A stretch of 41,098 bases of DNA from Verrucomicrobiales bacterium (GTDB lineage: Bacteria > Verrucomicrobiota > Verrucomicrobiia > Limisphaerales > UBA9464). The position numbers and the translations under genes were made by a program. The stretch is from the NCBI GenBank assembly GCA_005805505.1, contig SYMJ01000125.1, forward strand, positions 1 through 41,098, written 5' to 3'. Positions 1 through 39,407 of this stretch are shown here, one piece after another; position 1 is the first letter of the stretch, and every line of letters starts with the position of its first letter. Under the pieces are notes generated by a model, which saw only the letters and a list, made by a program, of their open reading frames with translations, was not told the origin of the DNA and did no database searches.

Positions 1-314
1 CCCCTCAGCTCAATTCCCTCCCGCGCCAAAGCGCTCAACAGCCCCTTTTTCCCGTAAAAACCCTCTGCCCGCTCCAGCAACTCCCTATCAGAAAGCTCAC
101 GCGCTTCCGGCACCCGGATTAGCAAGTGAAAGTGATTAGCCATCATGCAGTAGGTAATTACCTCCAGCCCGCAAAACGCCGAAAGCGACATCAGAATCTC
201 AGACATCTTCTCCCGACACGCCTCATTCAAAAGCTTCTCCCCACCCACAGTCCTCGAAATGCAGTGGTAAACCGCACTCCTCCCCTCCTGCCCCTTGATC
301 CGCGCCAACCTCAT
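1..314 (-). CDS. IS200-like (Y1 / REP-associated) transposase, N-terminal part, cut by window edge
   Basis: The minus-strand frame begins at ATG 312-314, with an in-frame TAG four codons upstream, and stays open for 104 codons to the window edge. It reads MRLARIKGQEGRSAVYHCIS, then a helix, then ITYCMMANHFHLLIRVP. The His-x-His in NHFHLLI is the HUH metal-binding pair of Y1 tyrosine transposases of the IS200/IS605 and RAYT type; the catalytic Tyr would lie beyond the edge. Proteins that begin this way in Verrucomicrobiota are usually single-copy REP-associated transposases (RAYTs) that process single-stranded hairpin ends, not complete insertion sequences. No flanking hairpin is obvious in the 150 bp downstream of its start. 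Domain identity is firm. The choice between IS200 transposase and RAYT is inference. Confidence 0.85.
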   Translation of the reverse strand, partial: MRLARIKGQEGRSAVYHCISRTVGGEKLLNEACREKMSEILMSLSAFCGLEVITYCMMANHFHLLIRVPEARELSDRELLERAEGFYGKKGLLSALAREGIELR

Positions 315-4876: not shown

Positions 4877-5489
4877 ACTGGAACGCTTCAACTAGATCCG
4901 TCGTGGTGGCTGCGTTTTCTTTCGCCAGAGCGTCGTTGTTGGCTCGTTACGAACCTCAATCACGAGCCCATGCAGGGCCCTGTCAGCAACGTTCCGGAAT
5001 CCACGGAAAGTGGCCGGTTTGAAATCCGCGGTTTTGCCGGATCCTTGGATTCGTTTTCTTTGCGGATGAGCTCCAGCGTTTCTTACTTCTTCCTTCTTCC
5101 AGATGAGGCCGAACGCTTCCGGCGCCCACCCGACTTGATAAGAATCCCCTCGGGCAACTGACCAACTGAGGCCGGATCGATGATCCGTTGAGTTTCTGGG
5201 ATCAGTGATTTTCAAACCGGCAGGTTTCATCGGTTTTCACACCGTCACTGACAAGGCCCGCGTTTCGCTCTCGCCGCGTCTTGCGAAAGAATCCGCCACG
5301 CTATTCCTCGGTCTCCCAACAGAAAAGCGTTCCGGTTAAGATCAGCCCGTCCGCACACCCAATTCCGAGATCGTAAATCGGATCTCAAAGAGGATTCCTG
5401 TGGCTGAGGAGCTTTCTCGAGATCCTTCGCCAAAACCCAAACTTTTCTTTCGCGTCGGCGTGCAAGGGCCTACCCTTTTTTCCTGTCGT
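4877..5489. other. Gene-poor stretch between pyrF and the MoeB-like gene
   Basis: No supportable gene is seen here. A minus-strand open frame at 4892-5230 (112 codons) resembles nothing I recognise and has no coding features. A perfect 6-bp inverted repeat, CGGATC-GAT-GATCCG, lies at 5173-5187, and a smaller dyad (AAACC..GGTTT) lies near 5214-5227. The plus frame of the next gene is open from 5400, but homology begins at the ATG at 5490. Confidence 0.5.
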
Positions 5490-16900: not shown

Positions 16901-17619
16901 CGCCGGCGAAGACCGGTTCCTGGGTGGATGAACTGCAGATGGAACCCCTCGATGTCATCGACCTCTCTACGGACATTGGCAACGGCGCTATTACCCTCAA
17001 GACGGCCCGTGTTCAAAGTGCTGCCCTTCGCATCGACGCTCGTGGAGGCCTGCGTTTCGCGCCGGTGATTACCAACTCGACACTGAACATCCCGATCACC
17101 ATCGCCCTGTCCCGGAAGATTTCTGAAAAGGCCATGCTAGTCGATGCCTCGACGCCGACCAATGCGGCTTACGCTCCGCTGCCGGAGTTCCTCACCATGA
17201 AGGGCACTTTGGGCAACCCATCACCGTCCATCGACAAGCTGGCTCTGGCATCCATGGGGGCCAAGACCCTCGGACGTGCCGCGGCTGGTTTGGGCGGCAA
17301 CCTCGGAGGGAAAGTGGCCGGGGCCGCCGGAATGCTGGGAAGTTTGCTTGGAACCCCTCCTGCGGCCCAGACTGCGACCGCCACTGCGACTGCGACCAAT
17401 GCGCCTGCTCCTGCTACGAAGAGTAGCCCATCACCCGCGACTGCAACCAATGCGCCTGGGCTGAAGATTAACCCGCCACCAGCGCTTACGGTCAATGCGC
17501 CTGCACCGAAGGTCAACCCTCTCCTGAACACCAACACCATCAATGCGTTGATCCCGACCAATTCTGCGGCCAAGGCCATAGAAGGTCTGCTCCGGGGATT
17601 CGGAAAACCCAAGAATTGA
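13948..17619 (+). CDS. AsmA-family (DUF748-like) large envelope protein
   Basis: The product is 1,223 residues from ATG 13948. It has an N-terminal membrane anchor (WPFIAGGAAASLVVLYFFL). Long repeats of amphipathic beta-strands follow, typical of AsmA/TamB/DUF748 proteins, which bridge the periplasm and are thought to move phospholipids or aid outer-membrane assembly. The early VDELSLQPFSGLELTKLRV segment is diagnostic, and a late AsmA-type block begins near TNLNLKLADTKTPL. From about residue 1,110 the chain becomes Gly/Ala-rich, then a Pro/Ala/Thr-rich tail with repeated TNAP units. A GTG at 13834 would add 38 non-homologous residues. The gene is divergent from the prepilin gene and ends 62 bp before the M20 peptidase gene. 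Confidence 0.87.
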   Translation: MSSETVRPARRWPFIAGGAAASLVVLYFFLTSSMFLKSFVLPKVSDAIGATIAVDELSLQPFSGLELTKLRVTPNGATSLATIDRVRVHYSLTAILGGTIDVSEVLLENPVITLEQAADGSMNLPKPSGQPTPATAPSTPPSKPILLKVRNVAIKDGSFRLTTIVPQGGKQTIEVTGINVSADQLANGSTTQLGLGASLAVFLPDGASLKGKIGGKYDIALTPELLPQTVAGSLRADIVSATGLLKEASGVSAGLAIDSTATELRQFKLAFEQGGQSFGSVSLSGPFDLAKQEAQIRYQIAGIDRRVLKVAAPLLPYDLGRTAISAEGRVDLLKQGKVIASQGRLTIADLSLMSPAGDKTPELQIVTEYRATVNQAEQSAKLETLGLTVTQAGRALINGGLDQPMSLSWAKAGQGVPDSTFKLSINRLETTDWQALAGTDLPSATVSAQLTVRATRDGKDFQATLQTALDNVVLVVGAKTIRGLQLKLATDATLAEFKDLNVKALDLNLQHSGRDLVTLKASAGHNADQKNSRAEFNGEFQIPALLETFPIDTASFSAGTLRINGKIDAKPGVTNLATDVVLAGLTGHFGELRLQDYQSAISLLADLSGNTLNLQKLQLTAQSGPGLGGMLEASGRYDLAQKIGDFAFKTIDFNERAIGPFVAAALAPKNLVSVSLDVNGKVSLLKGGDISLQTDLGVSRLVVNDPSGSVPNTPFAIGVTLDVAQRGSAIDLKNFRVDLGKTALAANQLVLKGSVDLATNAAPSALSIQSDGLDLTPLYNLLAGPTKTNATPAPADVVSKPAAASAEPSEPAPITLPLRQLAIDVNIAKLLLREIEIADWKARISLKDSVIAIDPLSLKINGAPITAKVTANVGVPGYRYDTQLRIDRLSLEPFVNSFTPERKGQIHGSLLVNANIRGAGVTGASLSSNLNGSFAFTATNLNLKLADTKTPLIRTIINVVTALPKLIQNPAAQVGGWIGQLTGGAPAKTGSWVDELQMEPLDVIDLSTDIGNGAITLKTARVQSAALRIDARGGLRFAPVITNSTLNIPITIALSRKISEKAMLVDASTPTNAAYAPLPEFLTMKGTLGNPSPSIDKLALASMGAKTLGRAAAGLGGNLGGKVAGAAGMLGSLLGTPPAAQTATATATATNAPAPATKSSPSPATATNAPGLKINPPPALTVNAPAPKVNPLLNTNTINALIPTNSAAKAIEGLLRGFGKPKN

Positions 17620-30444: not shown

Positions 30445-30741
30445 ATGGTTCGCACCCAAATTTATCTGACGCGCACCGAGCACGGTTTCATTGAGGCTGA
30501 GGCGGCGCGCCGGGGTGAAACGATGGCGGCGGTGATCCGTGGCTGCATTGACGACAAGATGCGGGTGCCCGACACCGCGTGGGCAGCCAACCCCATGCTG
30601 GAGCCCACGCCGTCGGATGCCGGTCTCGAATTGCCGGAGGATGCTGCCATCAACCACGACCACTACCTCTACGGAACGGCCAAAAAATATCTAAAGAAAC
30701 GGGGTAAATGGGTGCTGGCCGAATCGGAGGCGAGACACTGA
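30445..30741 (+). CDS. vapB: VapB-like ribbon-helix-helix antitoxin
   Basis: From ATG 30445 the product is 98 residues. The N-terminus MVRTQIYLTRTEHGFIEAEA, with AARRGETMAAVIRGCID after it, has the strand-helix-helix pattern of CopG/Arc-type DNA-binding domains. The remaining part (VPDTAWAANPM onward) is the flexible tail that wraps the toxin, with HDHYLYGTAKKYLKK near the end. Its TGA overlaps the ATG of the PIN-domain toxin by one base, the normal VapBC arrangement. The pair should autoregulate through an operator just upstream, though none could be picked out. A start at 30349 would add 32 residues with no homology. Confidence 0.85.
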   Translation: MVRTQIYLTRTEHGFIEAEAARRGETMAAVIRGCIDDKMRVPDTAWAANPMLEPTPSDAGLELPEDAAINHDHYLYGTAKKYLKKRGKWVLAESEARH

Positions 30742-31151
30742 TGCACAGCCACCGAGTCTTCCTCGATTCGTCGTTCTGGATCGCCTTCCGAGATGCCCGC
30801 CAGATCCATCATGCCCGGGCGCGCGAGTGTCTGGCCGCACTGTTTCAAGAGCGGACCCACTTCGTGAGCACACCCTTAGTGTTCGCGGAAACCCATGCGA
30901 CCTTTGCCCGTTCACTGGCAGTGCGCGAAAAGATCATCGCCGACTTCTGGGAAAATCCGCTGCTCCATTTCGCGGAGGTCACCGACGCCGACCACCGCGC
31001 GGCCATCCAGTTTCTGAGGCAGCACGCGGACAAGTCCTATCCCTTCTGCGACGCGATTTCGTTCGTCGTAATGCGGCGATTGGGAGTCAAACGGGTCGCG
31101 GCCTTTGATGACCACTTCCGGCAAGTCGGTGGGTTTGAGGTAATTGGATGA
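30741..31151 (+). CDS. vapC: VapC-like PIN-domain toxin ribonuclease
   Basis: The 136-residue protein is a PIN-fold magnesium-dependent endoribonuclease that inhibits translation by cutting tRNA or rRNA. The acidic site is complete: Asp9 in VFLDSSFWIA, Glu50 in VFAETHAT, Asp104 in FCDAISF, and Asp123/124 in AAFDDHF. The HAR-x-R helix and YPFCDAISFVVMRRLGV are typical of the VapC subgroup in Verrucomicrobiota and Cyanobacteria. It is coupled to the antitoxin by a TGATG overlap and is followed 109 bp later by an unrelated XRE antitoxin-like gene. Confidence 0.9.
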   Translation: MHSHRVFLDSSFWIAFRDARQIHHARARECLAALFQERTHFVSTPLVFAETHATFARSLAVREKIIADFWENPLLHFAEVTDADHRAAIQFLRQHADKSYPFCDAISFVVMRRLGVKRVAAFDDHFRQVGGFEVIG

Positions 31152-31260
31152 CCCAGGACTCTACGACCAGAATGGTTAACCGCCCGCAATCCTGAGCATC
31201 TAGACTGCAACTAAAGTCCCTGAAGACGGCGGTGGCGGTCATCAAGCAGCAGTTCCGACC

Positions 31261-31581
31261 ATGAAAAACAAAGACATCTCCTTCGATCCGGACGCTCTGG
31301 TGGCAAGTGTGGAAGCGATGGCGGACCATGTCCGCGGCGAGCGGAAGCTGACTCTCCGCAGGCGAACTCTATTGCCGATTCCGGTGAAACCGATGGAGGC
31401 CCGGGACGTCGCGGAAATTCGCCAGCGGTTGAACGTCAGCCAGGCGGTGTTTGCTTCGCTCCTCAACGTGTCGAGAGTCACGGCCATTAGCTGGGAGAAG
31501 GGGCGTCGACGTCCGAGCGGTGCCGCTCTGCGCCTTCTCGACTTGGCACGCCGTCGGCCCGAGGTGTTTCAGGAGGTTTGA
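31261..31581 (+). CDS. HigA/NadS-like XRE-family antitoxin or regulator
   Basis: The 106-residue protein has an N-terminal basic segment and a C-terminal helix-turn-helix: VAEIRQRLNVSQAVFASLLN and VSRVTAISWEKGRRRPSGAA, then LRLLDLARRRPEVF. This is the XRE fold of HigA, NadS and MqsA-type antitoxins, which sit downstream of a RelE/HigB-like toxin. Here no intact toxin precedes it. The only frame entering its start is a short one ending KTAVAVIKQQFRP and TGA, overlapping this ATG. It may be the tail of a lost toxin gene. A 20-bp tandem repeat begins directly after the stop. Confidence 0.82.
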   Translation: MKNKDISFDPDALVASVEAMADHVRGERKLTLRRRTLLPIPVKPMEARDVAEIRQRLNVSQAVFASLLNVSRVTAISWEKGRRRPSGAALRLLDLARRRPEVFQEV

Positions 31582-31621
31582 ACGTGGCTCATAACTTATG
31601 GACGTGGCTCGTAGCTTATGG
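31582..31621. repeat. 20-bp tandem duplication
   Basis: Units 31582-31601 and 31602-31621 both follow the pattern ACGTGGCTCrTArCTTATGG and differ at two positions. It starts one base after the XRE stop codon. It may be a slippage product or a duplicated binding site for the XRE protein. Confidence 0.75.
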
Positions 31622-31716
31622 ACCCAGGAGCCCGCGATTTCTTCGCCGCTCGCATCCTTCTTTACGAGTTTTCCCCCTCGAAGGAACTGCATCAGCGTCG
31701 TCATCTGGCGTCGGAA

Positions 31717-31875
31717 ACGGAGTCAGGGAACGATTTTTGAATTGGACTCAGTCGGGTGTCAGCAATTGTTGATCAATTCCTGGGCAAGAGCCCGTTCAGG
31801 CTGCGGAGCCCTTGACCGAGTTCTGAGCAATGGGAGCTGGTGCTTCCATAATCAAAAATCGTTTCATGACCCCGT
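31717..31875 (+). repeat. TIR repeat family, copy A (139-bp core at 31727-31865)
   Basis: The core begins GGAACGATTTTTGAAT and ends ATCAAAAATCGTTTC, nearly exact inverted copies. The similarity extends outward to an ACGGAGTCA/TGACCCCGT pair, which gives about 159 bp. The interior contains TGTCAGCAATTGTTG and CAAGAGCCCGTTCAGGCTGC. It is equal in length to copies B and C. A further half-end, AATTCAAAAATAGTTT, follows at 31880-31895. It carries no convincing gene. Confidence 0.88.
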
Positions 31876-31933
31876 TCCTAATTCAAAAATAGTTTGCGTT
31901 ACCTTGTTTGATCTCAAAAGACTTTCACTCAAA

Positions 31934-32149
31934 ATGAAATCCACTCATTTAAAACTTCTCAGCAAAATCTGTTTCGTTCTCGGCTTTGCCTCCATTATCG
32001 GTTCCATCGCCATTTGGTATCTTACAGGTGGTCAAGCGATCGACACGCAAGGGCACGGTGAACGATTTGGCATCTTCGTTGGACTGTGGGCTCCGACCTT
32101 TTTTATTCTCTCCAACCGCTTCGAACGTTTCTCTGAGAAAGCGGCCTGA
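31934..32149 (+). CDS. Small two-helix membrane protein of unknown function
   Basis: The ATG at 31934 opens a 71-residue frame. It has a basic start (MKSTHLKLLSK), a first transmembrane helix (ICFVLGFASIIGSIAIWYL), a polar loop (TGGQAIDTQGHGER), a second helix (FGIFVGLWAPTFFIL), and a short polar tail (SNRFERFSEKAA). Helix-loop-helix proteins with the FVGLWAPTFF pattern are seen in several phyla as uncharacterised membrane proteins. Its base composition is less GC-rich than that of the neighbours. It sits exactly between repeat copies A and B, 58 bp after one and 17 bp before the other, so it may have arrived with them. The frame is open upstream from 31598, but that part is repeat sequence. 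Confidence 0.65.
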   Translation: MKSTHLKLLSKICFVLGFASIIGSIAIWYLTGGQAIDTQGHGERFGIFVGLWAPTFFILSNRFERFSEKAA

Positions 32150-32166
32150 TCGTTTGGGATCTAGCA

Positions 32167-32324
32167 ACGGGCTCAGGAACGATTCCCGAATTTGACTCAG
32201 TCGGGTGTCAGCAATTGTTGCTCAATGCCTCGGCAAGAGCCCGTTCAGGCTGCGGAGCCCTTTGCCGAGTTCTCGGCAAAGGGAACTGATGCATCCAAAA
32301 TCGAAAATTGTTCCCAGACCCCGT
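32167..32324 (+). repeat. TIR repeat family, copy B (139-bp core at 32176-32314)
   Basis: The core runs from GGAACGATTCCCGAATTTG to CGAAAATTGTTCC and has the same length as copies A and C with scattered substitutions. It contains a perfect 12-bp inverted repeat, CCCTTTGCCGAG-TT-CTCGGCAAAGGG (32258-32283), that is imperfect in the other two copies. The outer ends extend to ACGGGCTCA and GACCCCGT. Confidence 0.88.
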
Positions 32325-32365
32325 CCCCACTGACCCCGTTTTCAGTCTCCCCGCCGGATTTTTTT

Positions 32366-32448
32366 TCTCACGCGGAGCCGCGGAGAGCGCGGAGGTCGGA
32401 GGTCGGAGGATTGGATTCTCTCCGCGAACTCCGCGTCTCCGCGTGAGA
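32366..32448. repeat. Long GC-rich inverted repeat (29-bp arms)
   Basis: The left arm, 32366-32394, begins TCTCACGCGGAG. The right arm, 32420-32448, ends CTCCGCGTGAGA. They pair with about three mismatches around a 25-nt loop that holds a tandem AGGTCGG. A run of eight T precedes it (32359-32366). Hairpins with CTCACGCGGAG arms are dispersed in Verrucomicrobiota and Planctomycetes genomes, to my knowledge. Here it lies 52 bp past the aminopeptidase stop and could terminate that transcript. Confidence 0.8.
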
Positions 32449-32500
32449 CGTGTTGGTTCATGCTTGTCGCTGTTCGTGGCGCGTGGACGGCCGCAGGATT

Positions 32501-35167
32501 CTACTTCTTCGCCTTCGCCGGATTCGCCGGCTTCGCAGATTTCACATGGCCCGGCTCGGCCGTCAGCGCGTCGATCTTCTTCTTCAAGTCATCGAACTCC
32601 TTGCGCAGATCGCGGTTCTCCTTCTGGAGCGTGATGACTTCGCTGCGGAGCGAGTCGGACTCGGCAGCGGGCTTCTTCGTGTTATTGATGGCACCAACCG
32701 CACGTTCCGCCGTGGCGCGAAGCGGACTTTCTTTCGGGGCGTTCGTGAACTTCTCCAGCGGACCAAGCGCCTTTACATCGCCCAATGTTCCTAGGGCCAT
32801 CACAGCGGCGAGCTGCACGCGGCGCTTTGAGCTGTCGAGATGCTTGAGCAGAAACTCGCGCACGGTGTCCTTCTTTTCCTCATCCTTCGCAAGCCGCGCG
32901 AGCGTGTCCAAGCCGCGCGCAAAACCGCCGCTAGTGAACGCTACCTCCTGCTTCTGCAACACCTCGAGCAACGGCGCGATGTAGCTGGCGTCCGCCTGCA
33001 CGCGGATGGCGCTAATGGCCGCGTCCGCCGTCGCGTTGCGATACGAGGCTGAGCTCAGCGCCTTGAGGATCTGCTCGCGCACTTCTGGCTTCGCATAGGA
33101 ACCGATTGATGCGAGCGCAATCGCCTGGATGTCTGGGTTCCGCTCGTCCTTCAGAATCTTCTGCGTGGCCGCATAGCTCGCCTCGCGATAGAAGCCGCCA
33201 ATGTCAGCAGTGACTTGCCGACGCACGCGGGCGTCACTCTGCTTCGTCGAGGCGATCAAAGCGTCGAGCGCCTCATCCGTCTGGATGGCGCGAATGGCCT
33301 GAGACGCTGCCAGGCGCACGCCGTAGAACGAATCGTTGTTCAACACCTCTTTGAGTTTGCCCAGTGCCTCCGCCTTACCGCTGAGCTGTTCGATGGCAAG
33401 TAGGCGACCGAGCAGATCAGCTTTGTCGATGAGTTGCAGATGCAACATCGCGGTCGGGACCTTGAAGTCGATCTTCGCCAGCAAGGTCTGGTTCGGATCG
33501 ATGCGGACCACCTCCGGTGCCTCAGTCAGCGGCACGTAGAAGTCCTCCGCCTTTTCCTTCACCGCCAGCGTGCGTTCGGTGACCACGCCCGACTTGCTCT
33601 TGAACCGCACCGGCAACGGGACGTTGAAGAGCAGCACGTCATCGCTGAGTTTCTGCACCTGCTGCACGGAGACCTTCGCGAGCTTGGTACGCTCGTCCCA
33701 GTTGTAGCTGATGTTCAGCTCGGGATGATGCGCGTGATAGACGTATTGGTTGAAGAACTGGTCGAATGAGCGGCCTGAGAGTTCCTCGATTACTTTGTTA
33801 AAATCGTCCGTGGCGACATTGCCAAAGGCGTGGCGCTCCAGATAGGTCTTCACGATCCGGCGATAAAGATCTTCGCCGAGCTGGCTGCGGAGCATGTGCA
33901 GAATCCAGCTCCCCTTGGGATACGCGTGGAAGCCGAACTGGTCGTTGGGACTGTTAAAGTCGCGGCGCACGATGGCGTTGGTGTCGTTCGGTTGATTGAG
34001 GACAGCGTTGGCATTACCGCGCATCTGGTAGAGGAAGGCGTCGCGCCCGTTTTTATGACCGGCGTAAAGCGCGTCGTAGTAGGTCGCAAAACCTTCGTTC
34101 AGCCAAAGATGCGACCAGTCCTTGCACGTCACGAGGTCGCCAAACCATTGATGCGCCAGCTCGTGCGCGACGAGGCCGGTGCTGTCGCGGAGATTCTCCG
34201 TGACGTCGCTGAAGAGCGTGCGGTCATTGAGAATCGTCATCGTCGTGTTCTCCATGCCGCCCCAGCCGAAATCCTCGACGCACACCTGATCATACTTCGC
34301 CCAAGGATAGAGCACGCCGATCTCCTTCTCGAAAAACTCCATCATGTCCTTTGTCCCACGGAAGGAGCTTTGCGCCTGGGCGATTTGCGAAGGGGGCGTC
34401 CAGAAGGCCATCGGGATGTCGCGATGCTTGTCTTCGATCTTCTTAAAGTTACCGGCGCAAAGCGCGATGAGGTAGTTCGCGTGCGGCTTGTCCTGCAACC
34501 AGCGCACGGCGACGAGACCGGTGGCGGCGTCCTTTTCCTCCGACATCTTGCGGCCGTTCGAGATCACGACCATGCCTTCGGGTACGCGGCAGGTGACTTC
34601 GCTGGTGAACTTCTCATTCGGCGCGTCGAAGCTGGGAAACCAATGACGCGCCTCGTAAGGCTCGCCCTGGGTCCAGAGATGCGAATCGCCCGCAGGATAG
34701 CCCATCTCAGTAGTGCGGAAGTAGAGACCTTGATCCGGCGTGGCGCTGTAGTGAATGGTCACGCTCGCCTCTTTGTCGGCGGGAATCGCTTCCGCGAACG
34801 TCACGATGACGTGCTCGCCCGTCGCCTGATAGCCGAGGATCTTCTCGCTTGATTCGACCGACGCAACGGCGAGATCGATGCCGTTGAGCTTCAGCTCGGC
34901 GAAGGGTTTCGCGATGGGCTTGAAGCGAAGCGTGACCTGGCCGGAGACGGAGCGCGCCTTGAAGTCCGGCGTGACATCGAGCGCCAGATGCAACAGGTCG
35001 ATCTCACGGCTCGGCGCGTATTTCAGAAAGTTCGAGGCTTCGGCGCTCGCGGCGAGCCATGTGTGGCCGTGGGCACAATAGAGATGCTCCGTTTCCGCCA
35101 GCGCCGGCCGGGGCGAGACGTGGAGAGTGAGCACAAGACAGGCGAAAAGGGCGAATCTGGTTCTCAA
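32501..35167 (-). CDS. Exported M1-family aminopeptidase with HEAT-like C-terminal domain
   Basis: The 888-residue product has a signal peptide (MRTRFALFACLVLTLHVSPR, then PALAE). The M1 fold is complete: an N-terminal beta domain, the exopeptidase motif GGMENT at 303-308, HELAH at 335-339 and the third zinc ligand Glu358 in LNEGFATYY, so HExxH-x18-E is exact. The catalytic Tyr lies further on, in the segment around FGFHAYPKGSWILH. The C-terminus (about 570-830) consists of HEAT-like alpha repeats with ADIGGFYREASYAAT and ALASIGSYAKPEVREQ. It ends in a coiled coil (LQKENRDLRKEFDDLKKK) and a Lys/Ala/Pro tail. It probably trims peptides outside the inner membrane. Its codons look richer in CGCG and GCGC than those of the neighbouring genes. 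Repeat copies B and C stand on its two sides. Confidence 0.93.
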   Translation of the reverse strand: MRTRFALFACLVLTLHVSPRPALAETEHLYCAHGHTWLAASAEASNFLKYAPSREIDLLHLALDVTPDFKARSVSGQVTLRFKPIAKPFAELKLNGIDLAVASVESSEKILGYQATGEHVIVTFAEAIPADKEASVTIHYSATPDQGLYFRTTEMGYPAGDSHLWTQGEPYEARHWFPSFDAPNEKFTSEVTCRVPEGMVVISNGRKMSEEKDAATGLVAVRWLQDKPHANYLIALCAGNFKKIEDKHRDIPMAFWTPPSQIAQAQSSFRGTKDMMEFFEKEIGVLYPWAKYDQVCVEDFGWGGMENTTMTILNDRTLFSDVTENLRDSTGLVAHELAHQWFGDLVTCKDWSHLWLNEGFATYYDALYAGHKNGRDAFLYQMRGNANAVLNQPNDTNAIVRRDFNSPNDQFGFHAYPKGSWILHMLRSQLGEDLYRRIVKTYLERHAFGNVATDDFNKVIEELSGRSFDQFFNQYVYHAHHPELNISYNWDERTKLAKVSVQQVQKLSDDVLLFNVPLPVRFKSKSGVVTERTLAVKEKAEDFYVPLTEAPEVVRIDPNQTLLAKIDFKVPTAMLHLQLIDKADLLGRLLAIEQLSGKAEALGKLKEVLNNDSFYGVRLAASQAIRAIQTDEALDALIASTKQSDARVRRQVTADIGGFYREASYAATQKILKDERNPDIQAIALASIGSYAKPEVREQILKALSSASYRNATADAAISAIRVQADASYIAPLLEVLQKQEVAFTSGGFARGLDTLARLAKDEEKKDTVREFLLKHLDSSKRRVQLAAVMALGTLGDVKALGPLEKFTNAPKESPLRATAERAVGAINNTKKPAAESDSLRSEVITLQKENRDLRKEFDDLKKKIDALTAEPGHVKSAKPANPAKAKK

Positions 35168-35268
35168 AATCGATTAACAGGAAATTGCTTGGGGGTGGAA
35201 GCAGCCATTTTCAAATTCACGCGATTGATTCCAGACGTCAATGGCGAATTGCCCAGCACTATGGTGGA

Positions 35269-35427
35269 GCGGGTCACGGAACGGTTTCCGAATTTGACTC
35301 AGGCGAGTGTCAGCAATTGTTGCTCAATTCCTGTGCAAGAGCTCGTTCAGGTTGCGGAGCCCTTGACCGAGTTCTGGGCAAAGGGAACTGGTGCATCCAA
35401 AATCGGAAATCGTTCCCCTGACCCCGA
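35269..35427 (+). repeat. TIR repeat family, copy C (139-bp core at 35278-35416)
   Basis: The core runs from GGAACGGTTTCCGAATTTG to CAAAATCGGAAATCGTTCC, so the ends match over about 19 bp with two or three differences. The outer parts GGGTCAC and CCTGACCCC continue the inverted match. The interior is shared with copies A and B. The element ends five bases from the stop codon of the DUF1501 gene (35432-35434). Confidence 0.88.
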
Positions 35428-35431
35428 TCCC

Positions 35432-36835
35432 CTAACCCGCGGCGATGACCTCGCGGACCACGTTGCCGAAGACGTCGGTCAGCCGGAAATCGCGGCCGGC
35501 ATGACGGAAGGTGAGGCGTTCGTGGTCGAAGCCCAAGAGCTTCAGCATCGTCGCGTGCAAGTCGTGAACCGAGACCGGATTCTCGACGGCCCGGAACCCG
35601 AAGTCGTCGGTCGCTCCATGGATGGTGCCGCCCTTGATCCCGCCGCCCGCCATCCAAAGGGAAAAACCCCAATGGTTGTGGTCCCTGCCCTGCGCGGCTC
35701 CCGATCCGTTTTGACCCATCTCCACCGACGGCGTTCTCCCGAACTCTCCGCTGCACAAGATGAGGGTGCTCTCCAGCATCCCCCGCTGCTTCAAATCCAT
35801 GATTAAAGCCCCAAGGCCTTGATCGCATTCGTTGGCTACCTTGCGATGTTCTTCGCGGATGTTCGAATGACTGTCCCAGGGCTGCATGTTTCCATGCCAC
35901 GTCTGCACGAATCGTACCCCGCGTTCGACGAGGCGGCGGGCGATGAGTAACTGCCGATTCTGCGGTCCTTCGCCGTAAGCCTTGCGAATGTGCGCGGGTT
36001 CTTGATCCACATCAAAGGCATCGGTCGCCTCCATTTGCATGCGGTAGGCCAGCTCGAAAGATCGAATCCGCGACTCGAGGGCTGCCTCGCCGGGCCGAGA
36101 TGCCAAGTGATCGGCGTTGAGTTCCCGCAACAGGTCAAACTGACGCTGTTGATCTTGAGGTCCGAGGCGTGCGTTGCGGATGTGGTCGATCAACTTCCGC
36201 GGATCCGCTTGCGAGGTGTCGACGTGGGTTCCTTGATAAGAACCCGGCAGGAAGGCCGAACGCCAATTGGCGGCTCCTCCCACGGGCATCCCACCTGGGC
36301 ACAAGGCGACGAAGGCCGGTAAATTCTGGTTCTCAGATCCCATGCCCCACGTCAACCACGAGCCAAAACTCGGACGCACCAGCCGCTGATCTCCGGTGTT
36401 CATGAGCATGAGCGATAGCTCGTGGCTGGGCAGCTCGACATGCATCGACCGGATGACCGCCAGTTCGTCGGCACATTGGGAAAGGTGAGGAAAGAGATCG
36501 CTGATCGGGATCCCGCTCTGGCCGTGTTGCCGGAAAGTGAAGGGCGATGGAAGGGCTACACCGGTCTTCCGCTCCGTCTGAAGGTTTTCATAGGGGAGCA
36601 TTTGGCCCGCCCGGCGCGTCAGCTCCGGCTTGGGATCAAATGTGTCCACCTGCGACATGCCGCCATTGAGAAACACATGGATGACCCGCCGGGCGGTGGG
36701 GGCAAAATGCGGGACAAGGGGTATGTCTCCAGCCAAGGCCGGCTGGCAGACCAAATCTGCGAGGGCCAGAGAGCCGAAGCCCATGCCGCAACGCGTCAGG
36801 AAGTTGCGCCGTGAATGAGGAAGCAAGGGGTTCAT
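35432..36835 (-). CDS. Tat-exported DUF1501 protein
   Basis: The start at 36835 gives 467 residues with a twin-arginine signal (SRRNFLTRCGMGFGSLALAD). DUF1501 features follow: RVIHVFLNGGMSQVDTFDPK, QHGQSGIPISDLFPHLSQ, CADELAVIRSM, ELMLMNTGDQ-like SLMLMNTGDQRL, LPAFVALCPGG, FVQTWHGNMQPWDSHSNI, and the C-terminal CSGEFGRTPSVE and GRDHNHWGFSLWMAGGG. These motifs link it to the alkaline phosphatase/sulfatase fold with a metal site, but its substrate is unknown. It starts 11 bp after the DUF1549/DUF1553 gene ends and forms the classic pair with it. Earlier in-frame ATGs (36868 and 36940) would place non-homologous sequence before the signal. Confidence 0.92.
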   Translation of the reverse strand: MNPLLPHSRRNFLTRCGMGFGSLALADLVCQPALAGDIPLVPHFAPTARRVIHVFLNGGMSQVDTFDPKPELTRRAGQMLPYENLQTERKTGVALPSPFTFRQHGQSGIPISDLFPHLSQCADELAVIRSMHVELPSHELSLMLMNTGDQRLVRPSFGSWLTWGMGSENQNLPAFVALCPGGMPVGGAANWRSAFLPGSYQGTHVDTSQADPRKLIDHIRNARLGPQDQQRQFDLLRELNADHLASRPGEAALESRIRSFELAYRMQMEATDAFDVDQEPAHIRKAYGEGPQNRQLLIARRLVERGVRFVQTWHGNMQPWDSHSNIREEHRKVANECDQGLGALIMDLKQRGMLESTLILCSGEFGRTPSVEMGQNGSGAAQGRDHNHWGFSLWMAGGGIKGGTIHGATDDFGFRAVENPVSVHDLHATMLKLLGFDHERLTFRHAGRDFRLTDVFGNVVREVIAAG

Positions 36836-36845
36836 GGGGTTCAGT

Positions 36846-39407
36846 TCAGTCCACGAATGAAAACTCATTGGAGGCGAGCAACGAATGCGCCGCCTGCTGC
36901 CACGCCATGGCCTGGGCTGCTTCGTCGCCAGTTCGCACAAAACGCAGGATCCGATCTAGCTCTGCTGGTCGGGGTTCGCGGGCAAACACGCGGTGGTAAA
37001 GTTCCCGGGCGCGCAGGACGTCATCCCGACCCGCAGCCTTGACGGCCAGCGCAGCGAGGGCTTTGGCTCGATCTTGGACGAACTCTGAATTCAGTGCGAA
37101 CAGGGCCTGCTGGGGAACCGTGGTGTCCGGTCGACGGGCGGTGCATGAGCTCGGGTTGGCCGCGTCGAAGGTGCTCGACAAGTTTGACACGATATCCCGG
37201 TTCACAAAGGCGTAGACACTGCGGCGCAGCACTCCGGCTTGAGCCTGACGATCGAATGGCTTACCGCCTATGCTCAGGTCGAGTTCACCCGATGCCCACA
37301 GCATGGAGTCGAGCATTGCTTCCATTTCCAGTCGGCGGGTCGGCATCCGCCACCAAAGCTGGTTGTCTGGATCCACATTCCTGGCCTTCTCGTTCTCCAC
37401 CGACCCTTGCGCATAGACGGCCGAGAGCAGAATGCGGCGGTGCAACCGCTTGATAGATCCGCCATCCGCCGCGAAGGCCGACGCCAGATGATCGAGCAAC
37501 TCTGGATGGGTCGGACGGTTGCCTCGCGTGCCCCAGTCGTCGGGCGTCCGGACCAGACCTTGGCCAAAGTGATGCTGCCAGACCCAGTTCACCAAGACCC
37601 GGCGTGTGAGGGGATTGTCAGATGAAACCACGGCACGGGCCAAACCCAGCCGGCGGGAGCCCTCAGGAAAGGGTTCTGCACCCGATCGGCTGAGCACGGA
37701 CAAGAATTGCGGGTTCACCACCTCGCCCCGCGCCAATGGGTTGCCCCGCTTCAGCACATGGAAGGCCGCGGGGGCCGGAGACTCGGTGAGAACCATGGCA
37801 CGGGCCGGAGATCCTGCCGCGTTCAGGTGCAACTCGTGAATGCTCCCTCGGCGTCCTCCCAAAGTATCATTGACGGTGCGATTCAGAAGTTTCAAGGCGA
37901 CCGCCTCCGTCACCGCGGTCGGAGTGTTCCCACCGTAAAGATGACGACGCAATTGCCGCAAGACCGGGCTGTTGATTTCGAGTTGTCGAGGGTCTTCGTC
38001 GGGAGTGATTTCCGCCCCGGTTGCCGCTTCGGCAGAAGCCGTTATGAGCGCCTTCAACCACGCCTGATGCACGGTAGCGAAAACCTCCCCATACGCATCA
38101 GCGACCTCGGCGAGGGACTTGCGAGGCTTCCGCCCCATCGCTTCCAGAACCCGGGGGTTCCATCGCGGGGCTTCTGCGGGGAGTTTGTGCAGGTCCTTGA
38201 TGGCGGCGGGGTCTCCGTTCTCTTTGTGGAGCGCGTTCACCAAATTGGTGCACGCCCCCTCAAATCCGTCGGCCGGCAGCCGGGCCAAACGCACCCAGGG
38301 CCCGAACACGGGATCGGTGTCGGGCATTGCAGCGAGGTAATCGCGCCAATGATTGAAGATCAACGGGCGGATGTCATCGGTGCGGTAGGACAGGAACTCG
38401 GTGGAGACATCCTGCTCCGGAACCCCCTTGGCGATCTCGCGCAAGTAGAGGCCCACCTGCATTCGCAAGCGGCCGCGCATCACCTCATTGTGCTCCGCGG
38501 CCATTTCATCGTGACGGGTCTGGAGGCGCACCAACTCCCGCTGGTAGTCGCGACGGGCGTCGTTGGTTTTGCCAGAATCAATCACCGGCAGAGAATCGGG
38601 CACGCCACTGGCAGCCAACGCCGCGTACAGGGAATAGTAATCCCGGGTCGAAATGGCATCGAACTTGTGATCATGGCATCGAGCGCAAGCCACGGTGAGG
38701 CCCATCAAGCCCCGTGAAACAACATCAATCTGATCGTCGATCACGTCGTGCCGGTTGCGGTATTGCATGCCGACCGTAAGAAATCCCAATCCCGCGAGGG
38801 CCGGATCATTCTCCTTCAGACCCAGTTGATCGGCGGCGATTTGCTCGGTCACAAACTGCTCGTAAGGCACGTCGGCGTTGAAGGAGCGGATGACGTAATC
38901 CCGGTAGGTGTAAGAGAATGGAAACCGGGTGAAACCAATGGCGCTCCCACCGTGAGTGTCGGCGTAGCGGGCGAGATCCAGCCAGTGACGGCCCCAGCGC
39001 TCTCCGTAGCGCGGTGAATTGAGCAACCGGTCTAACACCTTCTCGCGGGCATCAGGCGACGCATCCGCCATGAAACCCTGAACCTCTTCCCAAGACGGGG
39101 GCAGCCCGGTGAGGTCAAACGTGGCGCGTCGAATCCAGTCCAACCGAGAGGCCGGCTGCGACAGAGAAAGGCCGCGGGACTGGAGCGCAGCGACAATGAA
39201 CCGATCAATTTCAGTGTGGCTCGAAGCGACCCGCGGGGGAGGCACTGGGTTCCCTACCGGCTGATAAGCCCAGTGGTTGGAACTCATGCCTGCGAGCGGT
39301 GCAGCCTCCAGCAGCCCGATGGCAAAGAACCCAACTACTATCCAAGCGGCTAGGGTTTGAAGGAAACCGAGCCGCACACCCTGGCCATGCCATCGGCAAC
39401 GGTCCAT
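36846..39407 (-). CDS. DUF1549/DUF1553 protein (planctomycete-type), without N-terminal cytochrome domain
   Basis: The chosen start at 39407 (MDRCRWHGQGVRLG) leaves a signal peptide (FLQTLAAWIVVGFFAIGLLE). In-frame ATGs at 39419, 39446 and 39482 would lengthen it. DUF1549 begins near SHTEIDRFIVAALQSRGL and includes RRATFDLTGLPPSW, SPRYGERWGRHWLDLARYAD, and a CARCHDHKFDAI haem-like motif. DUF1553 begins near LARGEVVNP and includes SRRLGLARAVVSSDNPLTRRV and PTRRLEMEAMLDSMLW. Family members often carry an extra cytochrome c domain (PSCyt1) and sometimes a LamG domain before DUF1549; here neither is present, so only the internal CxxCH remains. It is paired with the DUF1501 gene 10 bp downstream. 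Its role is thought to be in envelope redox or carbohydrate handling, but this is not proven. Confidence 0.92.
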   Translation of the reverse strand: MDRCRWHGQGVRLGFLQTLAAWIVVGFFAIGLLEAAPLAGMSSNHWAYQPVGNPVPPPRVASSHTEIDRFIVAALQSRGLSLSQPASRLDWIRRATFDLTGLPPSWEEVQGFMADASPDAREKVLDRLLNSPRYGERWGRHWLDLARYADTHGGSAIGFTRFPFSYTYRDYVIRSFNADVPYEQFVTEQIAADQLGLKENDPALAGLGFLTVGMQYRNRHDVIDDQIDVVSRGLMGLTVACARCHDHKFDAISTRDYYSLYAALAASGVPDSLPVIDSGKTNDARRDYQRELVRLQTRHDEMAAEHNEVMRGRLRMQVGLYLREIAKGVPEQDVSTEFLSYRTDDIRPLIFNHWRDYLAAMPDTDPVFGPWVRLARLPADGFEGACTNLVNALHKENGDPAAIKDLHKLPAEAPRWNPRVLEAMGRKPRKSLAEVADAYGEVFATVHQAWLKALITASAEAATGAEITPDEDPRQLEINSPVLRQLRRHLYGGNTPTAVTEAVALKLLNRTVNDTLGGRRGSIHELHLNAAGSPARAMVLTESPAPAAFHVLKRGNPLARGEVVNPQFLSVLSRSGAEPFPEGSRRLGLARAVVSSDNPLTRRVLVNWVWQHHFGQGLVRTPDDWGTRGNRPTHPELLDHLASAFAADGGSIKRLHRRILLSAVYAQGSVENEKARNVDPDNQLWWRMPTRRLEMEAMLDSMLWASGELDLSIGGKPFDRQAQAGVLRRSVYAFVNRDIVSNLSSTFDAANPSSCTARRPDTTVPQQALFALNSEFVQDRAKALAALAVKAAGRDDVLRARELYHRVFAREPRPAELDRILRFVRTGDEAAQAMAWQQAAHSLLASNEFSFVD

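What the first reader, a model, noticed from the sequence alone, without database searches (positions are those of the whole stretch)
31717..35427. Three equal-length 139-bp repeats with inverted ends inside 3.7 kb
Copies A (31727-31865), B (32176-32314) and C (35278-35416) have identical core length and orientation and differ only by substitutions. Each has matching inverted ends (GGAACG-ATTTCCGAAT type). In copies A and C the end sequences changed together: TTTTTGAAT pairs with ATCAAAAAT in A, and TTTCCGAAT with ATCGGAAAT in C. That is what selection for a paired structure, or processing by an end-recognising enzyme, would leave. Outer GGGTCA/TGACCC arms extend the element to about 159 bp. 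It is too short to code for its own mobility, so it looks like a MITE- or REP-like element, or a structured RNA.
Basis: seen in the sequence. Interest (0 to 1): 0.82.

Follow-up and report, generated by a model that had tools for sequence, protein, structure and literature searches.

The report
Miniature mobile repeats bordering shuffled genes
The three repeats belong to a family of roughly 160-base, non-coding, transposon-like elements found in one group of freshwater bacteria; they look like shrunken relatives of a known kind of transposase-linked element, and they sit unusually often where gene neighbourhoods differ between related species.

Summary
A, B and C are three of 11 substantial copies found in this 3.6 Mb draft genome. 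Among the genomes searched, the family occurs only in one genus: 11 of 19 genus genomes, 0 of 40 others. Of 28 full-length copies, 21 have exactly 153 bp between the GGGTCA and TGACCC arms. Consensus ends start AACGGGGTCAG; GGGGTCAG fits GGGGWSAS, the motif published for inverted repeats around some Y1 (IS200/REP-like) transposase genes, "TIRYT". In a sister genome the same left end runs into a decayed Y1 gene. Best reading: a miniature, non-autonomous TIRYT-type element. No intact cognate transposase or clean empty site was found. RNA and coding readings failed; covariation is weak. The unexpected part is context. Copies sharing a contig point the same way (9 of 9 contigs). Gene order across element sites is broken in 57 of 75 comparisons, against 15 of 113 at control gaps. 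The M1-peptidase segment between B and C lies between other copies in one relative and beside the only copy in a distant one, consistent with horizontal transfer. Whether the elements cause this shuffling is unproven.

The parts
31716..31878 (+). Copy A of the element (full length; 153-bp core 31720-31872)
32166..32328 (+). Copy B of the element (full length; core 32169-32321)
35268..35432 (+). Copy C of the element (full length; core 35271-35423); its right end abuts the stop codon of the DUF1501 gene
31173..31878 (.). HTH gene (31261-31581) plus copy A: segment present in G000 between the PIN gene and the small ORF; G004 has 67 unrelated bases in its place
   Evidence: HTH_3 by Pfam
31934..32149 (+). 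71-aa small ORF between A and B; G006, G018 and G002 have its relative 0.1-1.1 kb after the PIN gene with no end motif in the stretches fetched
32329..35267 (.). Segment between B and C with the 888-aa M1 peptidase/HEAT gene (32501-35167, minus strand); held by 3 of 19 genus genomes (E <= 1e-150), at different positions
30708..31151 (+). PIN-domain gene, left border of the variable locus
35432..36940 (-). DUF1501 gene, right border of the variable locus

Best explanation
The repeats are copies of a miniature, non-autonomous transposable element, about 160 bp, of the Y1 (HUH, IS200-like) transposase group. More precisely it is a dimer of terminal inverted repeats of the kind published around TIRYT genes, with roughly 100 bp between. 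The left part appears to keep the leader and first bases of a Y1 transposase gene. A cognate Y1 transposase acting in trans would have cut at the two ends, probably as single-stranded hairpins, and spread the element (inferred; no intact cognate gene was found). Once dispersed, the copies serve as points where the chromosome recombines: gene segments lying between same-orientation copies are gained, lost or moved, most simply by homologous recombination between copies. The association with breakpoints is shown; that the elements cause it is inferred. My probabilities: miniature Y1/TIRYT-type element 0.72; elements as active exchange points rather than passengers in variable gaps 0.5.
For: Multicopy and genus-restricted: 14 matches in the genome; 11 of 59 genomes, all among the 19 of the genus. 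Length: 21 of 28 full copies at 153 bp; 625 substitutions against 12 indel events. Consensus ends hold GGGGWSAS on both sides, exact in 10 (left) and 11 (right) of 28 copies; motif from PMC3733652 (section 16 read) and PMC6006769 (passages). The left 69 bp match (78.6%, E 1e-9) a stretch of G014:C215 that continues into a frame-broken Y1 gene, MPRPIRIEFEGALHHVMARGN.... The right end follows a Y1 relic in G000:C221. Intact Y1 genes of the genus lie inside near-perfect 25-33 bp inverted repeats in 3 of 10 cases with both flanks. Context: same orientation in 9 of 9 multi-copy contigs; synteny broken in 57 of 75 element tests against 15 of 113 controls; 6 of 7 recurring left-flank classes have more than one right partner. 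M1 segment: G000 between B and C, G010 between two other copies, G007 beside its only match; the neighbouring rsmA of G007 is 95% identical to G008 but 70% to G000.
Against: No intact Y1 gene was found carrying this end: of 38 Y1-centred loci scanned, 2 held a match within 4 mismatches and none a pair; not every Y1 match was fetched. Of the three TIR-flanked Y1 genes, two have GGGGTCGG, which does not fit GGGGWSAS. Homology of the interior to the Y1 gene beyond the start is marginal: of nine global comparisons three are reached by 3, 38 and 50 of 2000 shuffles, the other six by 224-1247; six local alignments were reached by 11-375 of 500 shuffles. The G014 Y1 gene lies at a contig end, so its right end is unseen. 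No target duplication or clean empty site. Short end pieces elsewhere on the contigs do occur in the opposite orientation (L044, L047, L022, L058, L104). Five of 21 tested element sites show no break, and L3/R4 is conserved in three genomes. Crossover points could not be mapped. All genomes are drafts, and contig C62 of G007 ends inside the element.
Confidence: 0.7

Rival explanations
1. Elements are passengers: they insert into (or survive in) intergenic gaps that are already rearrangement hotspots, and play no part in moving genes.
For: The PIN-DUF1501 locus is variable also in genomes without any copy there: G014 and G017 carry a 4.1-kb gene, G015 a 185-aa ORF. In G010 the right junction is not flush with the element.
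Against: Control gaps in the same loci are broken in 15 of 113 tests against 57 of 75; at site level 8 of 33 against 16 of 21, and against 12 of 17 without the PIN-DUF1501 locus. At C130 homology to G010 starts on the first base outside the element's left edge, and homology to G004 ends 4 bp from its right edge.
Confidence: 0.4
2. Site-specific cassette exchange: the element is an attachment site used by a recombinase, integron-like, and the segments between direct copies are cassettes.
For: Same orientation in 9 of 9 multi-copy contigs. Single-copy sites in relatives correspond to two-copy sites with a segment between: G004 against G000 at B-C; G014 (L112) against G010 (L047).
Against: The three tyrosine recombinases found in the draft genome lie on contigs without copies or end motifs. 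Integron core motifs (recalled) are absent from the consensus: GTTRRRY in 1 of 28 copies, RYYYAAC in 1 of 28. Segments include genes in either orientation and reach 3-4 kb. Copies are 5'-truncated at several different points, which a fixed crossover would not give.
Confidence: 0.08
3. Structured regulatory RNA or conserved small ORF.
For: Copy B folds better than its shuffles on both strands, z -4.76 and -4.57 as RNA. The length is conserved.
Against: No Rfam hit at the gathering threshold. Inner hairpin covariation below the shuffle mean. No codon periodicity, p 0.63, and no frame open in all copies, at most 13 of 28.
Confidence: 0.04
4. GTAG-type REP/REPIN family.
For: Inverted pair of imperfect palindromes, largely between genes, with ends near Y1 gene remnants.
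Against: GTAG, GTGG and CGTC are absent from the consensus; GTAG and GTGG are absent from the outer 16 nt of all 28 copies, CGTC is in one right arm. Ends are long inverted repeats with GGGGTCAG instead.
Confidence: 0.1

Closest known systems
TIRtron/TIRYT systems (Di Nocera et al. 2013, PMC3733652; probably subclass 2.1 of TnpA-Y1 according to PMC6006769)
   Same: Inverted repeats with GGGGWSAS near a Y1 HUH transposase gene; repeats of the same kind dispersed in the genome and organised as dimers or clusters.
   Different: No intact cognate gene found; a miniature dimer nearly locked at 153 bp; copies border exchanged gene segments, which the sections and passages I read do not describe.
REPINs and RAYTs (Bertels and Rainey 2011, PMC3116915; abstract start in a search listing only)
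   Same: Short non-autonomous inverted pairs linked to Y1 transposases.
   Different: No GTAG tag, longer spacer, about a dozen full or truncated copies in this draft rather than the high numbers I recall for REPINs.
Bacterial MITEs, and MITE-bounded composite units such as TIME-COMPs (PMC13367494, abstract start in a search listing only)
   Same: Miniature inverted-repeat elements that can border mobile genes.
   Different: TIMEs derive from Tn3-family transposons; here the apparent source is a Y1 transposase and no target duplication was shown.
Integron attC cassettes (recalled)
   Same: Direct-oriented repeated sites between exchangeable genes.
   Different: No GTTRRRY core in the consensus, no integrase on the contigs with copies, mixed gene orientation, variable truncation.

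Membership tests
TIRYT-associated TIR elements | Ends are inverted repeats holding GGGGWSAS | tested here: met
   In the consensus at both ends; exact in 10 of 28 left and 11 of 28 right arms; 82.8% of arm cells pair
TIRYT-associated TIR elements | Same ends flank a Y1 transposase gene | tested here: inconclusive
   Left end before a broken Y1 gene at a contig end and right end after a Y1 relic at a contig start; no intact gene with both ends in 38 loci
TIRYT-associated TIR elements | Cognate transposase of TnpA-Y1 subclass 2.1 with a C-terminal HTH/DnaA_C-like domain (as in PMC6006769) | tested here: inconclusive
   Four other Y1 proteins of the genus gave only Y1_Tnp plus one hit below its cut-off, no HTH; the 60-aa start of the likely cognate gave nothing, and its C-terminus is not available
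TIRYT-associated TIR elements | Dispersed single, dimeric or grouped copies in the genome | tested here: met
GTAG REP/REPIN | GTAG-type tetranucleotide at the palindrome foot | tested here: not met
   absent from the consensus and from the outer 16 nt of 28 of 28 copies
MITE | Non-coding, short, with terminal inverted repeats, multicopy | tested here: met
MITE | Target-site duplication or clean empty site | tested here: inconclusive
   No locus with contiguous flanks and no element was found for the sites compared
MITE | Mobilised in trans by a transposase | not testable with these tools
   needs an experiment
Integron attC | RYYYAAC/GTTRRRY core and an integron integrase | tested here: not met
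   motifs (recalled) absent from the consensus; integrases on other contigs
Structured RNA family | Covarying helices or Rfam match | tested here: not met
   no Rfam match, inner hairpin none; arm covariation weak

The most novel reading that the evidence does not exclude
Miniature Y1-transposon relics act as a dispersed, oriented set of exchange sites: accessory gene segments are excised between two direct copies and re-enter at any other copy, in the same or another species, giving an integron-like gene-shuffling economy without an integron integrase. The M1-peptidase segment would be one such cassette, seen between copies at two chromosomal positions and beside the only copy in a distant species.
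Probability: 0.22. Interest if true: 0.8.

Novelty: new member of a known kind. Interest (0 to 1): 0.45.

Why it matters
It adds a miniature family from freshwater Verrucomicrobiota to the little-studied TIR branch of Y1-transposase elements, with an unusually steady length. If the link to breakpoints is causal, such short non-coding relics would be a cheap way for bacteria to swap whole genes, even between species, and that is testable by looking for circles and hybrid copies.

Tried and rejected
Structured RNA: Rfam, folding, consensus fold and pair counts; rejected. Coding: codon periodicity and open frames; rejected. GC-skew as a sign of replication-strand bias of insertion: mixed signs, inconclusive. 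This end beside intact Y1 genes: not found. Interior homology to the Y1 gene: not significant by local alignment, marginal by global alignment. Mapping the crossover in B and C: diagnostic sites conflict. I first read the ~120 bp right of a truncated copy in G004 as a remnant of the M1 segment; most of it is a dispersed palindromic repeat, so this is undecided. Spread outside the genus: one exact-pattern scan of viral contigs, and blastn of plasmids and phages, no match; one pattern scan of genome contigs gave 5 stretches from 4 assemblies, all titled as Verrucomicrobiota MAGs, one of them labelled Akkermansia. Papers on REP sequences at synteny breakpoints: no paper held three of the four terms.
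Full report
What is there. The three copies are real, direct, and equal in core length. The full unit is about 160 bp: consensus AACGGGGTCAGGGAACGATTTCCGAATTTGACTC ... GGTGCATCCAAAATCGGAAATCGTTCCCTGACCCCGTT. The window is contig C87 of a 3.62 Mb draft genome, 79.6% complete, in 247 contigs. That genome gives 14 blastn matches to copy B: one is a 26-bp match on the opposite strand of B itself, two are end pieces of 36 and 46 bp, and 11 are substantial copies, full or truncated. A 20-nt end motif with up to 3 mismatches gives 28 matches against 0 for the reversed control.

Distribution. Of 59 genomes searched, 11 hold a match (own genome included): all are among the 19 of the genus, none among 17 of other genera of the family and 23 of other families of the order. 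An exact-pattern scan of viral contigs and blastn of plasmids and phages gave nothing.

Fixed length, weak covariation. I collected 28 full copies; 21 have exactly 153 bp between the GGGTCA and TGACCC arms and seven have 152-158. Against their consensus they carry 625 substitutions and 12 indel events. Slips near the arm ends, as in copy B, may hide a few indels. The 23 arm pairs are standard in 82.8% of 644 cells (82.0% in shuffles), and two-sided changes are 9 cells against a shuffled mean of 5.2; across the five measures 17-75 of 500 shuffles reach the observed value. An end-recognising enzyme at the time of mobilisation, followed by decay, fits as well. The inner hairpin shows no covariation, there is no codon periodicity (p 0.63) and no Rfam match at the gathering threshold.

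Link to Y1 transposases. In G014:C215 the left end (GGGGTCAGGAAACGATTTCCGAATTTGACTCAGGCGGG) leads into ATGCCTCGGCCGATCCGC..., the start of a Y1 gene whose frame is broken; the ATG lies 57 bp after the first base of GGGGTCAGG. The first 69 bp of the element match there at 78.6%, E 1e-9. In G000:C221 a Y1 relic is followed by the element's right end. Other stretches share the ends but not the interior, for example 250 bp in G000:C26 and G010:C90 and 315-416 bp in G011. Against this, of 38 loci centred on Y1 genes of the genus, 2 hold one end motif within 4 mismatches and none a pair; not every Y1 match was fetched. Similarity of the element's interior to the coding part is marginal: nine global comparisons were reached by 3, 38, 50 and, for the other six, 224-1247 of 2000 shuffles, and local alignments were not significant. 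The genus does contain intact Y1 genes bounded by near-perfect inverted repeats of 25-33 bp (3 of 10 genes with both flanks): two of the same type in two genomes with GGGGTCGG, which departs from GGGGWSAS by one base, and one with GGGGTCAG.

Comparison with print. Di Nocera et al. 2013 (PMC3733652; section 16 read whole, other passages) define TIRYT genes and TIRtrons: Y1 transposase genes flanked by terminal inverted repeats, some sharing GGGGWSAS, with moderately abundant dispersed TIR families, many organised in dimers or clusters. PMC6006769 (2018; passages only) says that 20 of 26 described TIRYTs fall in its subclass 2.1. A search for the word TIRYT found only these two papers in the library. 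The element fits as a miniature TIR dimer of this kind: its consensus holds GGGGTCAG at both ends, while single copies hold an exact GGGGWSAS in 10 (left) and 11 (right) of 28. It lacks the GTAG tag of ordinary REPs.

Gene context. Copies (match of 50 bp or more) sharing a contig point the same way in 9 of 9 multi-copy contigs, though some of these are orthologous (L044/L047) or share a segment (window/L053). Short end pieces outside copies do occur in the opposite orientation (L044, L047, L022, L058, L104). Several second copies lack the 5' part at different points while the 3' end is whole; two others in G014 lack the 3' part. In the PIN-DUF1501 locus G014 and G017 have a 4.1-kb gene and no element, G015 a 185-aa ORF, G010 a single copy, G004 the small ORF then a single copy, and the window PIN-HTH-A-small ORF-B-M1-C-DUF1501. 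B shares its left flank with G004's single copy, C shares its right flank with that copy, and C shares its left flank with the M1-side copy of G010.

The M1 gene is held by 3 of 19 genus genomes (E <= 1e-150), at 97-98% amino-acid identity. In G010 it lies between a truncated and a nearly full copy at another locus. In G007 it lies beside that genome's only element match, at a contig end, with no element on its other side. The adjoining rsmA of G007 is 95% identical to G008 and 70% to G000, and the 1.29 kb holding it is 89% identical in DNA to G008, while the M1 segment is 94.3% identical to the window. That is best read as horizontal transfer; misassembly of the draft is the alternative.

Test of association. 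For 30 of 39 copies I asked whether left and right flanks stay adjacent in other genomes; the same test was run on 63 intergenic gaps at least 1.5 kb from any element in the same loci. Element sites: 18 kept, 57 broken. Controls: 98 kept, 15 broken. By site, 16 of 21 testable element sites have a break against 8 of 33 testable controls (p 2.5e-4), and 12 of 17 without the four sites of the PIN-DUF1501 locus (p 0.0024). Comparisons are not independent, loci were chosen because they hold elements, and flank class R0 owes part of its likeness to a second, palindromic repeat, so the strength is overstated; the direction is clear. Of 7 left-flank classes seen more than once, 6 have more than one right partner (one of them, L6, rests on a right flank of only about 100 bp at a contig end); L3/R4 is the exception, conserved in three genomes. 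At C130 homology to G010 starts on the first base outside the left edge and homology to G004 stops 4 bp from the right edge.

Mechanism. Shown: a nearly length-locked inverted-ended family, ends shared with Y1 gene remnants, and junctions at copies. Inferred: past mobilisation in trans by a Y1 transposase, and exchange between copies by homologous recombination. A circle carrying a gene and one copy entering a single-copy site would give the two-copy arrangements seen (G004-like to G000; G014 L112-like to G010 L047), but deletion between two copies gives the same picture in reverse, and crossover points could not be mapped.

Noticed in passing
window 3-314 (minus): Fragment of a different Y1_Tnp transposase (MRLARIKGQEG type) cut by the contig start; near-identical N-termini occur on contigs C228 and C245.
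   Followed up: partly
window 32345-32449: A GC-rich palindromic repeat (TCTCACGCGGAGCCGCGGAGAGCG...CTCCGCGTCTCCGCGTGAGA) next to copy B, also beside the copy in G000:C185 and in several relatives: a second dispersed repeat.
   Followed up: partly
L042 5263-5349 (G000:C185): A dispersed repeat of about 86 bp with dozens of matches in eight genomes of the genus, some in pairs roughly 130-180 bp apart; not identified.
   Followed up: partly
L125, L126, L138: Intact Y1 transposase genes inside near-perfect inverted repeats of 25-33 bp: apparent intact TIRtrons in this genus.
   Followed up: partly
L045 5702-5725, L047 6462-6498, L048 6915-6938, L046 409-432: The 13-bp outer unit (AACGGGGTCAGGA and variants) is tandemly repeated two to three times beside some copies, suggesting end slippage or stepwise end addition.
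   Followed up: no
L042 2931-4766 (G000:C185, left of its copy) and G007:C73: The gene left of another full copy has a 92-95% identical relative in the distant genome G007, a second candidate for transfer beside an element.
   Followed up: partly
window 4975-5259: Imperfect 50-nt inverted repeat, 72% complementary, 185 nt between the arms.
   Followed up: no
window 17357-17458: Two tandem 51-nt repeats, 71% identical, near the end of a large ORF.
   Followed up: no
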